A stretch of DNA of 64,000 bases, from positions 343,501 to 407,500 of the forward strand of contig NZ_CP009048.1 of assembly GCF_000746525.1 (NCBI RefSeq). Direction: 5' to 3'. This DNA is from Pseudomonas alkylphenolica. Its GTDB lineage: Bacteria; Pseudomonadota; Gammaproteobacteria; Pseudomonadales; Pseudomonadaceae. This document shows, piece after piece, positions 6,800-38,028 of this stretch. The notes under the pieces were generated by a model. That model made no database searches and was not told the DNA's origin. It saw only the letters and a program-made list of their open reading frames with translations. Position numbers and translations under genes: made by a program. The stretch's first letter is position 1. The number at the start of each line of letters is the position of its first letter.

Positions 6800-7072
6800 T
6801 TATTCGGCTGGTGGAACGTAGCCTTCGGCCTTTTCGAATTCCTGGCCGGAGAAGAACTTGTCCATCTCGCCCTGGAGGAATTTGCGGTCCTCGGCGTTCA
6901 TCATGTTCAAGCGCTTCTCGTTGATCAGCATGGTCTGTTCCTTCTGCCAGTCGGCCCAGGCCTTCTGCGAGATGTGCTCGTAGATGTCCTGGCCCTTGGC
7001 GCCCGGGTACGGTGGGCGCTCCAGACCTGGCAGTTGTTCTTTGTACTTGCGGCACATTACGGTGCGGGTCAT
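6800..7072 (-). CDS. yggX: Fe(2+)-trafficking protein YggX
   Basis: A 90-residue protein of the YggX family, linked to iron handling and protection of Fe-S clusters from oxidation. It begins [20 protein letters not shown] with the conserved Cys7, and contains the signature [19 protein letters not shown]. Its ATG overlaps the mutY stop (ATGA), so it is coupled to mutY, whose product is itself an Fe-S protein. Confidence 0.97.
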
Positions 7073-32135: not shown

Positions 32136-34085
32136 ATGTTGAACACCCTGCTTCCCATCCTCCTGTTCGCCGCCCTGGGCCTCGCCGTCCTCGGCGCGCT
32201 GCGACGTGTGCGGATGTGGCGCCAAGGCCGGCCGTCCAAGGTCGACCTGCTCGGCGGCCTGCTGGCCATGCCGCGGCGCTATATGGTCGACCTGCACCAC
32301 GTGGTCGCCCGTGACAAATACATGGCCAACACCCACGTCGCCACCGCCGGTGGCTTTGTGCTGGCTGCGGTGCTGGCGATCCTGGTGCACGGCTTTGGCC
32401 TGCACAACAAGATTCTTGGCTATGCTTTGCTGCTGGCCACGGTGCTGATGTTTGCCGGTGCGCTGTTCGTCTACAAACGCCGGCTCAACCCGCCTTCGCG
32501 CCTGTCGAAAGGGCCGTGGATGCGCCTGCCGAAAAGTTTGCTGGTGTTCGCCGGCAGCTTCTTCATTGCCACCTTGCCGGTGGCCGGCATTCTTCCCGAA
32601 GGCTTTGGCGGGTGGGTGCTGGTGGCCTTGCTGGGGCTTGGTGTGCTTTGGGGCGTGTCCGAGCTGTTCTTCGGCATGACCTGGGGCGGGCCGATGAAGC
32701 ACGCCTTTGCCGGGGCCTTGCACCTGGCCTGGCACCGTCGCGCCGAGCGCTTCGGCGGTGGCCGTTCCACCGGCCTCAAACCGCTGGACCTGGAAGACCC
32801 GCAGGCATTGCTGGGCGTTGAGAAACCCAAGGATTTCACCTGGAACCAGTTACTCGGCTTCGATGCCTGCGTGCAGTGCGGCAAGTGCGAAGCCGCGTGC
32901 CCGGCCTTTGCTGCCGGACAGCCGCTGAACCCGAAAAAGCTCATTCAGGACATGGTCGTCGGCCTGGCCGGCGGCACTGACGCCAAGTTTGCCGGCAGCC
33001 CGTACCCCGGCAAGCCAATCGGCGAGCACGGCGGCAACCCGCACCAGCCAATCGTCAACGGCCTGGTCGATGCCGAAACCCTGTGGTCGTGCACCACCTG
33101 CCGCGCCTGCGTGGAGGAGTGCCCGATGATGATCGAGCACGTCGATGCCATCGTCGACATGCGTCGTCACCTGACTCTGGAAAAGGGCGCCACGCCAAAC
33201 AAGGGCGCCGAGGTGCTGGATAACCTGATCGCCACCGACAACCCGGGCGGCTTTGCCCCAGGCGGGCGGATGAACTGGGCCGCAGACCTCAACCTGAGCC
33301 TGCTCAGCGATACCAAAACCGCAGACGTGCTGTTCTGGGTCGGCGACGGCGCCTTCGACATGCGCAACCAGCGCACCCTGCGCGCCTTCGTCAAAGTGCT
33401 GAAAGCGGCTCAGGTGGACTTTGCCGTGCTTGGTCTTGAAGAGCGCGACAGTGGTGATGTGGCCCGGCGCCTGGGCGATGAAGCGACCTTCCAGCAACTG
33501 GCCAAACGCAATATCCAGACCATGGCCAAGTACAGCTTCAAGCGTATCGTCACCTGCGATCCGCACAGCTTCCATGTGCTCAAGAATGAATATGGCGCCT
33601 TCGGCGGCGAATATCGGGTGCAACATCACAGCACCTACATTGCCGAACTGATCGGCGCGGGTGCGCTGAATCTTGGGCAGCACAAGGGCGGCAGCGTCAC
33701 CTATCACGACCCGTGCTACCTGGGCCGTTACAACGGTGAGTACGAGGCGCCGCGTGAAGTACTGCGGGCCCTGGGCATCGAAGTGAAGGAAATGCAGCGC
33801 TCGGGCTTCCGCTCGCGTTGCTGTGGCGGTGGCGGCGGTGCGCCGATCACCGACATTCCCGGCAAGCAGCGGATTCCCGACATGCGCATGGAGGATATCC
33901 GCGAGACCGCCGCCGAGCTGGTGGCCGTGGGTTGTCCACAGTGCACGGCGATGCTCGAAGGGGTGGTCGAACCGCGCCCATTGATCAAGGACCTGGCAGA
34001 GCTGGTCGCCGATGCCCTGCTCGAAGAACAGGCCCCGGCGAGTAAACCTGCCCCGGCAAAGCGTGAACCTGCGGAGGTGCACTGA
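32136..34085 (+). CDS. dgcB: Dimethylglycine demethylase subunit DgcB (Fe-S electron transfer)
   Basis: A 649-residue membrane-linked iron-sulfur protein. The N-terminal 200 residues hold about five hydrophobic helices (DUF3483-like). Two [4Fe-4S] motifs follow, CVQCGKCEAACP (about 247-258) and CTTCRACVEECP (about 320-331). A CCG heterodisulfide-reductase-type domain ends the protein (YHDPCYLGRYNGEYEAPREV, RCCGGGGGAP). It should carry electrons from dimethylglycine oxidation to the respiratory chain. A frame extends to 32118; ATG 32136 is chosen. The stop overlaps the etfA start (TGATG). Confidence 0.93.
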   Translation: MLNTLLPILLFAALGLAVLGALRRVRMWRQGRPSKVDLLGGLLAMPRRYMVDLHHVVARDKYMANTHVATAGGFVLAAVLAILVHGFGLHNKILGYALLLATVLMFAGALFVYKRRLNPPSRLSKGPWMRLPKSLLVFAGSFFIATLPVAGILPEGFGGWVLVALLGLGVLWGVSELFFGMTWGGPMKHAFAGALHLAWHRRAERFGGGRSTGLKPLDLEDPQALLGVEKPKDFTWNQLLGFDACVQCGKCEAACPAFAAGQPLNPKKLIQDMVVGLAGGTDAKFAGSPYPGKPIGEHGGNPHQPIVNGLVDAETLWSCTTCRACVEECPMMIEHVDAIVDMRRHLTLEKGATPNKGAEVLDNLIATDNPGGFAPGGRMNWAADLNLSLLSDTKTADVLFWVGDGAFDMRNQRTLRAFVKVLKAAQVDFAVLGLEERDSGDVARRLGDEATFQQLAKRNIQTMAKYSFKRIVTCDPHSFHVLKNEYGAFGGEYRVQHHSTYIAELIGAGALNLGQHKGGSVTYHDPCYLGRYNGEYEAPREVLRALGIEVKEMQRSGFRSRCCGGGGGAPITDIPGKQRIPDMRMEDIRETAAELVAVGCPQCTAMLEGVVEPRPLIKDLAELVADALLEEQAPASKPAPAKREPAEVH

Positions 34086-35308
34086 TGAGCGACATTATTC
34101 GCCGTGATCCGCGCGCCGAGTGGATTGCCCGCAACCGCCTGCACCCGCTGCACGCAGCTATGCAACAGGGTCAGCAGCACAGCTGGATGGGCCCCAACGG
34201 GGTCATCCGCAAGAACCTCCATGGCGTCGGCTTTATCGGCCCCAACGGCATCAAACGCATCGACCGCAGTGGCGCCCAGCAGGGCACCAGCAACAAGCGC
34301 AGTGCGGCGGCGGTGGTGGAGTTGCCGTTGCATCAAGTACTGCAACCGGCGTTCTACATCGCCGTGGTCCCGGACATGGTCGGTGGCCGCCTGGGCAGCC
34401 ACGACCGCGACCTGCTCGGCCTGGCCCATAGCCTGGCCGGGAGTGACGGCGCGGTGTTGGCCGTGGTGTTTGGCGAGCACAAGGAAAATAACTTTTCCAC
34501 AGCCGGTGTTGATCGCTTGCTGGTCATCGAGGGCGATGAATTCGACGGATATGCACCGGAGCAACTGGTGCAGGGCCTGCGCGCTGTGGATAACCAGTTC
34601 AACCCGCGCCACTGGCTGCTGCCCGACAGCCGCACCGGTGGCGGCGAATTGGGCCGGCGTTTTGCTGCAGCGATCAATGAACGCCCGGCTACGCGGGTCT
34701 GGCAGGTCAAGGACGGCCAATGCAGCGGTCGCGCCGGTGCTGGCCAGCAGGACCTGATTCGTCGCCTGCCACGCTTGATTCTGGCCGCAGCCGAATGCGC
34801 CGAGCCGGTCAGTGAAACGCGTCACGAAGCCTTGCCTGAGCAGTTATCCACAAGCGTGGCACGCAGCCTGTCACGTATCGAAGACCTCGGTCCGGTGGCT
34901 GTCGACCCGGCCGCGATTGCCATGGCCGAAGCCGAGTTCATTGTGTCCGGCGGTAACGGGGTCAAGGACTGGGAGCTGTTCCACCGCGCCACCGTGGCCC
35001 TCGGCGCAACCGAGGGCGCGTCGCGGGTGGCGGTGGATGACGGCTTCATGCCGCGCAATCGGCAAGTCGGGGCCACCGGTACCTGGGTGACCGCACGGGT
35101 CTATGTGGCTGTGGGTATTTCCGGGGCGATCCAGCACCTGCAGGGCATTGGCGCCTGCGACAAGGTGGTGGCGATCAACATGGACCCTGGCTGCGACATG
35201 ATCAAACGTGCCGATCTGTCGGTCATCGGCGACAGTGCGGCGATCCTCCAGGCGCTGATCGAGGCTGTGGAAAACTATCGCAACGACGCCAAGTGCGACG
35301 CGGCATAA
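34085..35308 (+). CDS. etfA: Electron transfer flavoprotein alpha subunit (betaine-pathway type)
   Basis: A 407-residue EtfA. The C-terminal FAD domain is clear (GFMPRNRQVGATGTWVTARV, VAVGISGAIQHLQGIGACDK, INMDPGCDMIKRADLSVIGD). The N-terminus has about 75 extra residues with two related segments, SWMGPNGVIRK and GFIGPNGIKRI. It should pair with the next gene product to accept electrons from dimethylglycine or sarcosine oxidation. The coding sequence contains perfect DnaA boxes at 34585-34593 and 34844-34852. Confidence 0.92.
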   Translation: MSDIIRRDPRAEWIARNRLHPLHAAMQQGQQHSWMGPNGVIRKNLHGVGFIGPNGIKRIDRSGAQQGTSNKRSAAAVVELPLHQVLQPAFYIAVVPDMVGGRLGSHDRDLLGLAHSLAGSDGAVLAVVFGEHKENNFSTAGVDRLLVIEGDEFDGYAPEQLVQGLRAVDNQFNPRHWLLPDSRTGGGELGRRFAAAINERPATRVWQVKDGQCSGRAGAGQQDLIRRLPRLILAAAECAEPVSETRHEALPEQLSTSVARSLSRIEDLGPVAVDPAAIAMAEAEFIVSGGNGVKDWELFHRATVALGATEGASRVAVDDGFMPRNRQVGATGTWVTARVYVAVGISGAIQHLQGIGACDKVVAINMDPGCDMIKRADLSVIGDSAAILQALIEAVENYRNDAKCDAA

Positions 35309-35323
35309 GGGCAGGGGACAACT

Positions 35324-36094
35324 ATGAACACCAAGGTCATCAGTCTGGTTTCGATCGGTGCTCATCCCAGCTCCGGCCGCACCCGGCGCGCCGAGCAGGA
35401 CGCACGGGCGGTGGAGCTGGGCCTGCAGCTGGCTGGGGATAACTTGCAGGTGCTGCATGCTGGCGATCCTCAGGAGCCGGCCTTGCGCGCCTACCTGGGC
35501 ATGGGCCTGGAACAACTGGATGTACTTGAACAACCGTCGGGCGCCGATGCCCTCGGGGTACTCGGCGATTACCTGCGCGATGCCGGTGCCCAGCTGGTGC
35601 TGACCGGGAGCCAGGCGGAAACCGGTGAAGGCTCCGGCATGCTGCCGTTCCTGCTGGCCGAACGCCTGGGCTGGCCGCTGGTGGTGGGCTTGGCCGAGGT
35701 GGAATCTATCCACAATGGCGTGGCCCAGGTGCTGCAGGCGCTGCCACGCGGCCAGCGGCGCCGGCTCAAGGTGCGCCTGCCGCTGCTGGCAACGGTGGAT
35801 AACGCCGCGCCAAAGCCACGCCAAAGCGCTTTTGGCCCGGCTCGGCGTGGTGTGTTGGCCGCCCGCCAGGTACAGATTGTCGAAGACGAGTTATTCACAA
35901 GCGCCGAACTGCAGCCGGCCAAACCGCGGCCCAAGCGCTTGAAAGTGATCAAGGCCAAGAGCGGTGCCGATCGCATGAAAGCGGCCACGGCCAAGGCCAG
36001 CGGTGGCGGTGGACAAGTGCTCAAGGATGTCAGCCCGCAAGCCGGTGCCGAAGCCATCCTCAAACTGCTGGTGGAAGAGGGTGTGCTGCGCTGA
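35324..36094 (+). CDS. etfB: Electron transfer flavoprotein beta subunit (betaine-pathway type)
   Basis: A 256-residue EtfB. GAQLVLTGSQAETGEGSGML with LPFLLAERLGWPLVVGLAEV corresponds to the AMP-binding/recognition region of the family, and KPRPKRLKVIKAKSGA precedes the C-terminal tail. It follows etfA by 15 bp. Together they form a dedicated ETF for this pathway rather than the housekeeping pair. A DnaA-box variant TTATTCACA lies inside the gene at 35891. Confidence 0.92.
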   Translation: MNTKVISLVSIGAHPSSGRTRRAEQDARAVELGLQLAGDNLQVLHAGDPQEPALRAYLGMGLEQLDVLEQPSGADALGVLGDYLRDAGAQLVLTGSQAETGEGSGMLPFLLAERLGWPLVVGLAEVESIHNGVAQVLQALPRGQRRRLKVRLPLLATVDNAAPKPRQSAFGPARRGVLAARQVQIVEDELFTSAELQPAKPRPKRLKVIKAKSGADRMKAATAKASGGGGQVLKDVSPQAGAEAILKLLVEEGVLR

Positions 36095-36664
36095 GCAGTT
36101 GCTCACAAAGTCTGTTGGCCGATCTGTGGATAAAGTGTTTGTGTATCGCTGGAAGGCACGCATGGCGTGCCTTTCGGCGTTATGGTCAAAAAGTGATCAG
36201 GCTAAGTGACGGATTTTTCGAGATTTTCTCTCACCGCCTTGGTTGATATTGCCCACAATCGCTGTTGGCGGGTCTGTGGATAATATGTTTGCCCATGGCG
36301 GAGAGCCCCGTGTGGCAAGGGTTTCACGAGGTTGATCAAAAAACACCCAATTCGCCTGTTTGCCTTAGCCAATGCTGTGTATCTGGGCCATTTGAGGCGT
36401 TATCCACAACGGTTTTCCACGCTTGGGACTTTTGCACACAAAGTCTGTTGGCGTCTCTGTGGATAAGGTGTTCGCCTTCTGCTGTGAGCCTTGTGTTTAA
36501 AGGCTTGTAGAGATTTGATCAAATATTGATCAATATTTTTTGCAGGGAAAAACAATGACTTGCCCACATTAGCTGTGGGCTGTCCTGTGGATAAAGTGTT
36601 TGCTGTGTGCAGGGGCCCAGTGGGGCCGGGGCGTTGCGCGAGGTGGTTAAAATTTGAGCAGAGC
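36095..36664. other. DnaA-box cluster in four 40-bp repeat units
   Basis: This region between convergent etfB and gbcA has five perfect DnaA boxes. TGTGGATAA occurs at 36125, 36275, 36458 and 36586, and TTATCCACA at 36400. The four same-strand boxes lie in units with consensus TTGCNCACA ... CTGTTGGC ... CTGTGGATAA.GTGTTTG. CACA is always 21 bp before the box (36104/36125, 36254/36275, 36437/36458, 36565/36586). TTGCNCACA itself is a degenerate inverted DnaA box. An AT-rich tract with two TTGATCAA sites lies at 36511-36541. No gene is convincing here. It resembles a DnaA titration or reactivation site. Confidence 0.85.
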
Positions 36665-36729
36665 ATCGCGGGGCAAGCCCGCTCCCACCGGTTTTCACCA
36701 TCCCGGTGGGAGCGGGCTTGCCCCGCGAT
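36665..36729. repeat. REP pair 8 (type A)
   Basis: Inverted REP copies with ATCGCGG ends outward, 7 bp before the gbcA stop. Confidence 0.92.
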
Positions 36730-36735
36730 CAGACT

Positions 36736-38028
36736 TTACTGCACAGCCACACCCTTGAGATAAGGCGCAGGCGCCGCCCCCAGGTTGTTCAACATACGCT
36801 CGCTGTACCAGTCAACGAAGTTCACCACCCCGAACTCATAGGTCTTGGAATACGGCCCAGGCTGATACGCCGTGGAGTTGATCCCGCGCTGGTTCTCTTC
36901 GGCCAGGCGCCGGTCCTGGTCGTTGGTGGCGTCCCATACCTGGCGCATGCGCTCGGGGTCGTAGTCCACACCCTCGACCGCATCCTTGTGCACCAGCCAC
37001 TTGGTGGTGACCATGGTTTCCTGGGCGCTGATCGGCCACACGGTGAAGACGATCATGTGATCGCCCATGCAGTGGTTCCACGAGTGCGGCAGGTGCAGGA
37101 TGCGCATCGAACCGAGGTCCGGGTTCTTGATCCGGCCCATCAGCTTCTGGCAGCCCTGCTTGCCGTCCAGGGTCATCGACACCGTGCCCTTGAGCAGCGG
37201 CATGCGCACGATGCGGTTGCGCAGGCCGAAGCTGGCGTGGGCATACGGAATCTTCTCGGCGTCCCAGGCCGCAGCCGAGGCGGCGACGTGATCCTTGAAG
37301 GCCTGGTCGGCACGCGGGTCGGTGACGTCGTCCCATTCCAGCAGGGTTTTCAGCAGCTCCGGGTGCGAACCGCTGCAGTGGTAGCACTCGCGGTTGTTTT
37401 CCAGCACCAGCTTCCAGTTGGCCTTTTCCATCAAAGTGGTTTGCACCGCCACCTTGGTGTTTTCCATGTCGTAGGGCTCCATGTAATGAGCCAGGGTGGC
37501 GAGGAAGTCGTCGATCGCCGGCGGATTCTCGGCCAGGCTGATGAAGATGTAGCCGCCAGCGGTCTTGACGTTGACCGGTTTGAGCCCGTACTGCTTCATG
37601 TCGAAATCGGCACCCATCTCGGTGCCGGCGAACAGCAGGCGGCCATCGAGCTCGTAGGTCCACTGGTGGTAATGGCAGACCAGTTTCGCCACCTTGCCCT
37701 TGTCGCTGGTGCACAGCCGAGAACCACGGTGACGACAGACGTTATGGAAGGCATGCACCTGGCCTTCAGCACCGCGCACCACGAGGATCGGGTTCTTGCC
37801 GATCTGCAGGGTGAGGAAGTTGCCCTTGGCCGGGATTTCACAGGTCATCCCGGCGATCAGCCATTCCTTCTGGAAAATCTCTTCCATATCGATCTGGAAC
37901 AGGCGTTCGTCGCTATAGAACGGCTGTGGCAGCGAGAAGGTACGCTCGCGGCTCTGCAGCATCTCGGCAGTCGCCTTGCGCGCAGGTTCCAGTGGATCGC
38001 CCAGACTCAAAGTTGCGGTGACGTCCAT
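36736..38028 (-). CDS. gbcA: Glycine betaine monooxygenase, Rieske oxygenase subunit
   Basis: A 430-residue Rieske non-heme iron oxygenase. The [2Fe-2S] motif is CRHRGSRLC ... CHYHQW (about residues 98-121), and the mononuclear iron site lies in ENNRECYHCSGSHPELLKTL with a later acidic ligand. It oxidatively demethylates glycine betaine to dimethylglycine, releasing formaldehyde, with electrons from GbcB. It is divergently transcribed from gbcB. Confidence 0.96.
   Translation of the reverse strand: MDVTATLSLGDPLEPARKATAEMLQSRERTFSLPQPFYSDERLFQIDMEEIFQKEWLIAGMTCEIPAKGNFLTLQIGKNPILVVRGAEGQVHAFHNVCRHRGSRLCTSDKGKVAKLVCHYHQWTYELDGRLLFAGTEMGADFDMKQYGLKPVNVKTAGGYIFISLAENPPAIDDFLATLAHYMEPYDMENTKVAVQTTLMEKANWKLVLENNRECYHCSGSHPELLKTLLEWDDVTDPRADQAFKDHVAASAAAWDAEKIPYAHASFGLRNRIVRMPLLKGTVSMTLDGKQGCQKLMGRIKNPDLGSMRILHLPHSWNHCMGDHMIVFTVWPISAQETMVTTKWLVHKDAVEGVDYDPERMRQVWDATNDQDRRLAEENQRGINSTAYQPGPYSKTYEFGVVNFVDWYSERMLNNLGAAPAPYLKGVAVQ

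What the first reader, a model, noticed from the sequence alone, without database searches (positions are those of the whole stretch)
34490..36600. Dense DnaA-box cluster spanning etfA, etfB and the etfB-gbcA gap
Seven perfect TTATCCACA sites (either strand) lie within 2.1 kb: 34585, 34844, 36125, 36275, 36400, 36458 and 36586. Close variants occur at 34493 and 35266 (TTTTCCACA), 35706 (CTATCCACA) and 35891 (TTATTCACA). At about 62% GC I roughly expect fewer than 0.01 perfect sites in this length, and the other 62 kb holds only two (26737, 46514). It is not oriC: no dnaA, dnaN or rpmH is present. Known loci with such clusters are datA and DARS of E. coli, which tune DnaA-ATP. A counterpart in Pseudomonas inside a betaine locus would be new to me.
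Basis: partly seen in the sequence, partly recalled or inferred. Interest (0 to 1): 0.88.

Follow-up and report, generated by a model that had tools for sequence, protein, structure and literature searches.

The report
Phased DnaA-Fis replication-control array in Pseudomonas
Between two genes of a betaine-breakdown region this Pseudomonas carries four copies of a DNA module that looks like the E. coli switches (DARS) that recharge the replication starter protein DnaA, lined up on one face of the helix and kept in most related species examined, so it is probably part of how Pseudomonas times its chromosome replication.

Summary
In detail: seven perfect DnaA boxes in 2.1 kb, two in the rest of the window. 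It is not a loose cluster. The etfB-gbcA gap holds four copies of a ~115-bp module: DnaA box I(+), 5 bp, box slot II(-), 3 bp, box III(-), a dyad, and a Fis-type site 59 bp from box III. The slot spacing equals that of the E. coli DARS1 and DARS2 cores. A profile of modules from outside the genus, found with the Pseudomonas profile, has DARS1 as its best match in the 38 kb of E. coli searched (27.8 bits). Modules occur in 70 of 81 etfB loci. Their spacings change in whole helical turns (10.74 bp; 0 of 20,000 null draws). Two boxes inside etfA fall on its most constrained synonymous codons. All 45 genomes of the genus sampled have modules; in 16 complete ones 121 of 152 lie within 15% of the genome from dnaA. 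Against: slot II is degenerate here, IHF sites are lacking, and DARS2 matches weakly. I read it as a DARS-family DnaA/Fis array acting on DnaA; whether it reactivates or sequesters DnaA is inferred. It is a new variant of a known kind; the searches made found no account of it.

The parts
36097..36211 (+). Module 1: box I 36099-36107 (TTGCTCACA), slot II 36113-36121, box III 36125-36133, Fis-type site 36184-36198 (GGTCAAAAAGTGATC)
   Evidence: R1 hit G000:379597-379711, 79.5 bits (the window's modules are in R1's training set); slots; Fis consensus
36247..36361 (+). Module 2: box I 36249-36257 (TTGCCCACA), slot II 36263-36271, box III 36275-36283, Fis-type site 36334-36348 (GATCAAAAAACACCC, loose consensus only)
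   Evidence: R1 hit, 80.8 bits; also 54.0 bits with an HMM of modules from outside the genus
36431..36542 (+). Module 3: box I 36432-36440 (TTGCACACA), slot II 36446-36454, box III 36458-36466, Fis-type site 36517-36531 (GATCAAATATTGATC)
   Evidence: R1 hit, 89.1 bits
36558..36668 (+). Module 4: box I 36560-36568 (TTGCCCACA), slot II 36574-36582, box III 36586-36594, Fis-type site 36645-36659 (GGTTAAAATTTGAGC)
   Evidence: R1 hit, 59.9 bits
36400..36408 (+). Single perfect DnaA box on the other strand between modules 2 and 3, without a module of its own
   Evidence: slot scores 2, 4 and 8 of 8
34585..34593 (-). DnaA box inside the etfA coding sequence (codon indices 166-169), perfect in 76 of 80 relatives
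   Evidence: synonymous-constraint ranks 2 and 7 of 302 columns
34844..34852 (+). DnaA box inside the etfA coding sequence (codon indices 253-255), perfect in 43 of 80 relatives; most others begin TTG instead of TTA
   Evidence: synonymous-constraint ranks 1, 4 and 3 of 302 columns
35794..35802 (-). DnaA-box place inside etfB: one mismatch here (TTATCCACC), perfect in 61 of 80 relatives
34085..35308 (+). etfA-type gene (electron transfer flavoprotein alpha)
   Evidence: PF00766, PF01012
35324..36094 (+). etfB-type gene (electron transfer flavoprotein beta); runs towards the array
   Evidence: PF01012
36736..38028 (-).
   Evidence: PF00848, PF00355; in 52 of 52 relatives with modules and this gene held, all modules lie between the two gene ends

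Best explanation
The etfB-gbcA gap is a helically phased array of four DARS-family modules. Shown by sequence: each module has box I(+), 5 bp, slot II(-), 3 bp, box III(-), a dyad and a Fis-type site; neighbouring modules are separated by whole helical turns; the array is kept across most of the genus. Inferred: DnaA nucleates on the perfect box III and spreads to the weak slots I, II and +11, Fis binds at +59, and the repeats stack into one DnaA-Fis complex on one face of the DNA. Inferred and least certain: as in E. coli DARS, the complex makes ADP-DnaA release its nucleotide, so that a Fis-rich, fast-growing cell recharges DnaA soon after the locus is copied. I give about 0.85 to 'DARS-family DnaA/Fis array acting on DnaA' and about 0.45-0.5 to reactivation as its direction; the main alternative is a sink or inactivator.
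For: Geometry: the forward-box score peaks at -26 from box III in 246 Pseudomonas gap boxes and in 15 modules from other genera, the offset measured for DARS1 (3108/3134) and DARS2 (7452/7478) in MG1655. Of 20 further modules from other families, best-placed slots I-III score 18-24 of 24 and slot II is perfect in 16; R1 was trained on a degenerate slot II, so that was not selected for. An HMM of the same alignment gives 45 hits at E up to 10 in 843 kb and 0 in the reversed sequence. Fis: 220 of 225 modules match GNNYRNNNNNYRNNC in the 101 bases after the box (shuffle mean 55.3), with 183 matches at offset 59 and 36 at 60; a Fis homologue is encoded (59% identity). Phasing: 13 spacing classes, period 10.74 bp, R 0.975, 0 of 20,000 null; in E. 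coli a 5-bp shift of DARS2's Fis sites considerably inhibited activity, a 10-bp shift only moderately (PMC4245941, passages). Constraint: 5 of the top 7 synonymous columns of etfA lie in its two boxes. Position: 121 of 152 modules in 16 complete genomes within 15% of genome length from dnaA.
Against: Slot II, the partner of box I in the head-to-head pair that is essential in DARS (PMC10380432, section 10), matches the box at only 3-4 of 8 positions here. No strict IHF site lies in the array, and only 4 of 69 arrays have one, whereas DARS2 needs IHF. DARS2 itself scores 10.8 bits with R2, fifth and below a datA and an oriC one-box match of about 12; R1 gives no E. coli match above 7.1 bits. DARS1 has no Fis match at +59. 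Single copies with a perfect slot II exist in the same genomes and could be the true DARS. At other loci the spacing is not phased at 10.74 (R 0.54; best 0.80 at 11.47). Eight etfB loci with at least 5 kb held beyond etfB lack modules. R1 was trained on these modules; the -26 offset of box I and the Fis site are part of R1, so their presence in hits from other genera is partly selected.
Confidence: 0.5

Rival explanations
1. DARS-derived DnaA sink or inactivator. The modules lost the strong box II needed for reactivation; weak II, strong III and weak +11 boxes in one orientation gather ATP-DnaA head to tail, as in oriC or datA. Early replication doubles the sites soon after initiation, which lowers free ATP-DnaA and blocks re-initiation.
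For: Slot II degenerate yet conserved (TGTTGG, each letter invariant or at least 90% in A1); weak same-orientation box maxima at -12 and +11 (3.6 and 3.5 of 8). The five loci of this genome lie 6-13% of the genome from oriC, like datA (0.10 in PMC5010248, Table 1) rather than DARS2 (0.21) or DARS1 (0.33). Copies with a perfect slot II exist separately. B. subtilis has DnaA-box clusters outside oriC whose loss gives early initiation (PMC13220808, passage).
Against: datA needs IHF; none found in the window array, 4 of 69 arrays. A pure sink does not need slot I, the dyad, the Fis site or helical phasing. In E. coli DARS2 moved to 0.01, 0.02 or 0.09 from oriC gave a wild-type phenotype, and DARS1 moved beside oriC raised origin number (PMC5010248, passages and Table 1), so an oriC-side place does not exclude reactivation.
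Confidence: 0.33
2. Nucleoid or segregation landmark: DnaA and Fis, with an unknown dyad-binding protein, fold the oriC-side domain, and initiation control is a side effect.
For: In most of the 16 complete genomes modules lie at several loci on both arms around oriC, and they are helically phased at the array; a dyad of unknown reader recurs without RNA-like covariation; Fis is known as an architectural protein (recalled).
Against: Slot spacing equals that of DARS, and the profile leads to DARS1, which acts on DnaA's nucleotide. Links to parS were not examined.
Confidence: 0.1
3. Local transcription control or an RNA element: DnaA/Fis regulate etfAB or gbcA, or the units are terminators or small RNAs.
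For: Module 1 has a strong hairpin just after the etfB stop, and inverted repeats score above shuffles (40 of 246 against 1 at 20 or more); DnaA is also a transcription factor (PMC8203912, listing only).
Against: The array lies between convergent gene ends in 52 of 52 testable loci. No covariation of the inverted repeat (496 of 500 shuffles reach the observed pairing). No promoter-like site and one terminator-like site against 1.6 expected. No Rfam match up to E 1 except far below the gathering score at 36.65-36.75 and 37.2 kb, which touch only the end of module 4. Modules also stand beside other ORFs.
Confidence: 0.05
4. Chance or mere repeat spread: a mobile or slipped repeat that happens to hold DnaA boxes.
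For: Tandem copies; a REP-like pair adjoins (36.66-36.74 kb, seen by eye).
Against: 0 of 100 shuffles; recurring place and number across the genus; coding boxes held by synonymous codons; quantised spacing.
Confidence: 0.02

Closest known systems
E. coli DARS1 (bioD-uvrB gap)
   Same: Box I(+)-5-II(-)-3-III(-) and a related downstream flank: best E. coli match of R2, model positions 2-89 of 111. DARS1 needs a specific flank beside its core (PMC4585315, passage).
   Different: One copy, strong box II, no Fis match at +59, 0.33 of the genome from oriC; here four copies, strong box III, a Fis-type site, about 0.06.
E. coli DARS2 (near mutH)
   Same: Same core spacing; activated by Fis (PMC4245941, abstract; PMC8682772, passages).
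   Different: Needs IHF sites, not found here; weak profile match (10.8 bits); one core. A DARS-like pair at uvrB and mutH is reported for Vibrio cholerae (PMC6090056, passage); I found no uvrB or bioD beside the modules tested.
E. coli datA
   Same: Non-coding DnaA-box locus on the oriC side (0.10).
   Different: Box-IHF-box layout absent here; R2 matches only one box there (11.8 bits).
B. subtilis DnaA-box clusters outside oriC
   Same: Several clusters near oriC (PMC13220808, passage).
   Different: I did not compare sequences; no Fis or DARS geometry is known to me for them (recalled).

Membership tests
DARS (DnaA-reactivating sequence) | Three DnaA-box slots spaced I(+)-5-II(-)-3-III(-) | tested here: met
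   MG1655 DARS1/2 spacing measured; same offsets in Pseudomonas and in modules of other genera; four window modules
DARS (DnaA-reactivating sequence) | Head-to-head boxes I and II that both bind DnaA | tested here: inconclusive
   Box I 6 of 8, slot II 3-4 of 8 in the window; II is 8 of 8 in DARS1/2 and perfect in ten single copies looked at; binding not tested
DARS (DnaA-reactivating sequence) | Sequence-profile link to a known DARS | tested here: met
   R2: DARS1 27.8 bits, E 7e-8, but DARS2 only 10.8 bits; R1 alone shows no link; 0 decoy hits
DARS2 | Fis site near the core | tested here: met
   220 of 225 modules, mostly offset 59-60, by consensus only; in E. coli DARS2 the sites lie elsewhere (loose matches at 7013, 7281 and 7635)
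DARS2 | IHF sites IBS1-2 | tested here: not met
   No strict site in the window array; 4 of 69 arrays
DARS (DnaA-reactivating sequence) | Promotes ADP release from DnaA | not testable with these tools
   Needs purified DnaA
datA | DnaA boxes flanking an IHF site | tested here: not met
oriC | Origin beside dnaA | tested here: not met
   dnaA near 9.4 kb of the genome, about 370 kb away; oriC region scores at most 7.9 bits with R1; P. putida oriC lies between rpmH and dnaA (PMC3056050, passage)
oriC-proximal DnaA-box clusters (DBC) | Several DnaA-box clusters outside oriC, on its side of the chromosome | tested here: met
   121 of 152 modules within 15% of genome length from dnaA; perfect boxes decline with distance
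oriC-proximal DnaA-box clusters (DBC) | Loss advances initiation | not testable with these tools
   Needs deletion strains

The most novel reading that the evidence does not exclude
Pseudomonas controls DnaA with a distributed, oriC-side set of some ten DARS-derived modules in which the strong box moved from slot II to slot III, turning a reactivating element into a Fis-gated, helically phased DnaA-ATP sink; single copies further out keep a strong slot II and the reactivating role, so one module family supplies both arms of the DnaA cycle.
Probability: 0.28. Interest if true: 0.92.

Novelty: new variant of a known kind. Interest (0 to 1): 0.8.

Why it matters
How bacteria other than E. coli and B. 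subtilis tune DnaA is poorly known. The data suggest that a DARS1-type module occurs in most sampled Gammaproteobacteria (194 of 218 genera with an R2 match at E up to 1e-5, own and training genomes included) and that Pseudomonas multiplied it, with a phased array near oriC. That gives exact sites to delete, move and bind in a genus with good laboratory strains. The helical-turn rule predicts that half-turn insertions break function.

Tried and rejected
RNA hairpin or terminator: the inverted repeat after box III looked like one, but its pairs do not covary and no terminator excess appeared. oriC remnant: oriC shares single boxes and a loose 'CTACAG' flank only (at most 7.9 bits with R1). IHF site: none strict in the window array, 4 of 69 arrays. 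R1 directly against E. coli: best match 7.1 bits, one box; the link came only through R2. uvrB or bioD beside modules of other genera: none in the short stretches held; the one tblastn hit was a 29% match in an own-genome stretch without modules. Absolute phasing at other loci: not supported, though at one pair lengths fall at 362-365 and 375-376, about a turn apart. Papers: searches listed no account of DARS-type sites in Pseudomonas; I looked at passages of the two papers that hold DARS1, DARS2 and Pseudomonas together (PMC10218098, PMC6090056), and they do not describe any. Most listed papers were seen as titles and abstract beginnings only. The 2009 DARS paper is not held, and a review says that similar sequences are conserved in many proteobacteria, so earlier notice of Pseudomonas copies cannot be excluded.
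Full report
OBSERVATION. TTATNCACA occurs 10 times in the window against 0.56 expected. The genome (G000, one contig of 5,764,622 bases; window = 343501-407500) has 128 perfect boxes against 10 for the pattern read backwards, and no other 2.1-kb stretch beginning at a box has seven. dnaA lies near 9.4 kb, so the locus is about 370 kb from oriC.

CONSERVATION. Boxes recur inside etfA and etfB and in the gap after etfB. Perfect boxes stand at the 34585 place in 76 of 80, at the 34844 place in 43, at the 35794 place in 61. Of 246 boxes in the orientation of box III after etfB, in window plus relatives, 225 sit in one composite sequence (the other 21 were dropped from module counts). Modules are present in 69 of 81 loci by that score and in one more (L068) by profile. 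Of the 11 left, three contigs end within 20-813 bases of etfB; eight lack modules: L062 (one 12.7-bit partial match), L065, L067, L074, L082, L083, L086, L107. Four of these also lost the 34585-type box that all 68 module-bearing relatives keep (the test there counts L068 as without modules; Fisher p 9e-5, not corrected for relatedness). Where modules and the convergent oxygenase gene are both held, all modules lie between the two gene ends in 52 of 52 loci.

CODING BOXES. In an 81-sequence codon alignment of etfA, 302 columns have a residue conserved in 90% or more. Box codons rank 1, 2, 3, 4 and 7 for departure from normal codon use (for example GCT in 77 of 81, where GCT is 10% of Ala codons). 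Other box codons are ordinary (ranks 60 and 225). The 35891 box in etfB is not conserved.

ANATOMY. Alignment A1 used 108 of 186 dereplicated modules. Consensus: TTGCCCACA, 5 bp, TGTTGGCNN, 3 bp, TGTGGATAA, 2 bp, TGTTCG, then a dyad (CTGNAGGCC...GGCTTNCAG), then TTGATCAAAAAATGATCAA. The dyad does not covary as an RNA stem, so I take it as a DNA site; its reader is unknown. The last element fits the Fis consensus printed in PMC8682772 (passages): strict form in 94 of 225 modules (shuffle mean 14.6), a looser form in 220 of 225 (shuffle mean 55.3), with 183 matches 59 bases and 36 matches 60 bases from the start of box III. A Fis homologue (59% identity) and an Hda homologue (47%) are encoded. 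Strict IHF sites: none in the window array, 4 of 69 arrays, four sites in all against 1.0 in shuffles.

PHASING. Distances between successive modules fall at about 128, 139, 149, 161, 172, 182, 193, 300, 310, 321, 343, 354 and 365 bp: period 10.74, R 0.975 with each class counted once, 0 of 20,000 null draws (155 distances, one of 803 bp dropped). In the window they are 150, 183 and 128. At other loci, 32 spacings give R 0.54 at 10.74 and 0.80 at best (11.47); at one pair lengths fall at 362-365 and 375-376, about one turn apart. So in-phase spacing is shown for this array only.

OTHER LOCI. Profile R1 (trained on A1) finds 11 modules in G000 at E up to 0.002: four here, pairs near 442, 5101 and 5201 kb and one at 744 kb; a twelfth match is weak (E 0.31). 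All 45 genomes of the genus sampled, own included, have matches. In 16 complete genomes, own included, the largest array has four modules in 11, three in G020, G012 and G014, seven in G041 and two in G003. I did not check which genes flank the arrays in those relatives. 121 of 152 modules are within 15% of genome length from dnaA, where 30% would be expected (rounded genome sizes for relatives).

LINK TO DARS. R1 also hits 47 of 145 genomes of the order (30 of 82 genera, E up to 1e-4) and 25 of 281 of the class (19 of 218 genera, E up to 1e-5), own genome included in both. In modules fetched from other genera the sequence mostly reads TTGTCCACA or TTATCCACA, 5 bp, TGTGGATAA, 3 bp, a third box. 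Slot II is perfect in 16 of 20, and a Fis-type site stands at +59 or +60 from the third box in 19 of 20 (L185 lacks it) and close to there (+58 to +60) in 13 of the 15 other loci. R1 carries a degenerate slot II, so the perfect box there is independent evidence; the box I offset and the Fis site are not, being part of R1. E. coli DARS1 and DARS2 measured in MG1655 have the same 5- and 3-bp spacing. R2, from 37 modules outside the genus (one locus, L155, of the same family), has DARS1 as best match in 38 kb holding DARS1, DARS2, datA and oriC: 27.8 bits, next 12.9 (near asnC), one-box matches at oriC 11.9 and datA 11.8, DARS2 fifth at 10.8. An HMM of the same alignment gives 45 hits at E up to 10 in 843 kb and none in the reversed sequence; the window's modules score 29.7-54.0 bits although none was in its training set. 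R2 matches 243 of 281 genomes of the class (194 of 218 genera; about 20 of these genomes supplied training modules) and 93 of 150 in a phylum sample, 54 of them marked as another class, so it is not confined to Gammaproteobacteria. Whether all these matches are DARS is untested.

TWO SUBTYPES. In the window slot II scores 3-4 of 8 and box III 8 of 8. Single copies elsewhere in Pseudomonas keep a perfect II: CAATCCACA-5-TGTGGATAA-3-RGTGGANAA in seven genomes, about 25-31% of the genome from dnaA in the five where dnaA was placed, and three others. So the oriC-side modules look like a derived subtype. In DARS the head-to-head I-II pair is essential and III stimulates (PMC10380432, section 10), which leaves open whether this subtype reactivates DnaA or holds it.

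MECHANISM. Shown: architecture, conservation, phasing, position. Inferred: binding by DnaA and Fis, assembly into one complex, effect on initiation. I lean to reactivation because the family is DARS-like and Fis activates DARS2 (PMC4245941, abstract and passages), and because in E. coli DARS2 placed at 0.01, 0.02 or 0.09 from oriC gave a wild-type phenotype (PMC5010248, passages and Table 1). The sink reading is close behind.

LITERATURE. Seen as passages, tables or named sections: PMC8682772, PMC4245941 (with abstract), PMC10380432, PMC4585315, PMC13220808, PMC5010248, PMC10218098, PMC6090056, PMC3056050. All others were seen only as search listings. No paper listed or 92 was seen to describe DARS-type sites in Pseudomonas. 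The original 2009 DARS paper was not held.

I reopened one paper, looked at passages of three more, and recounted box conservation, slot II and the oriC element. Changes: conservation counts per coding box, array sizes in relatives, the oriC element (6 of 11), and the DARS relocation passage.

Noticed in passing
G000:C1:1427708-1427812 (L194:2509-2613): A single module with strong box II about 25% of the genome from oriC, near an ORF that looks RmuC-like to me (no family search run); the same form recurs in six relatives looked at (G015, G010, G036, G018 and, from another genus of the family, G145 and G122). Candidate canonical Pseudomonas DARS.
   Followed up: partly
G000:C1:5717151-5717457, 743028-743467 and 54790-71347: Other groups of perfect DnaA boxes that R1 does not report as modules.
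   Followed up: no
G000 whole genome: Perfect DnaA boxes fall off steeply with distance from oriC (51, 29, 23, 7, 2, 12, 2, 0, 1, 1 per 5% bin), most of them outside the modules.
   Followed up: partly
L138-L148, upstream of dnaA: GTACAGAGAATGACAAC follows the first DnaA box of oriC in 6 of 11 stretches, exact; its reader is unknown.
   Followed up: partly
G041:C1:1113593-1114786 (L168): A seven-module array 1.1 Mb from dnaA with spacings alternating near 168 and 193 bp, not phased at 10.74 bp.
   Followed up: partly
window 36660-36740: A REP-like inverted pair (GCGGGGCAAGCCCGCTCCCACC) next to module 4.
   Followed up: no
family f197: An unnamed family outside the class has up to nine R2 matches per genome.
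   Followed up: no
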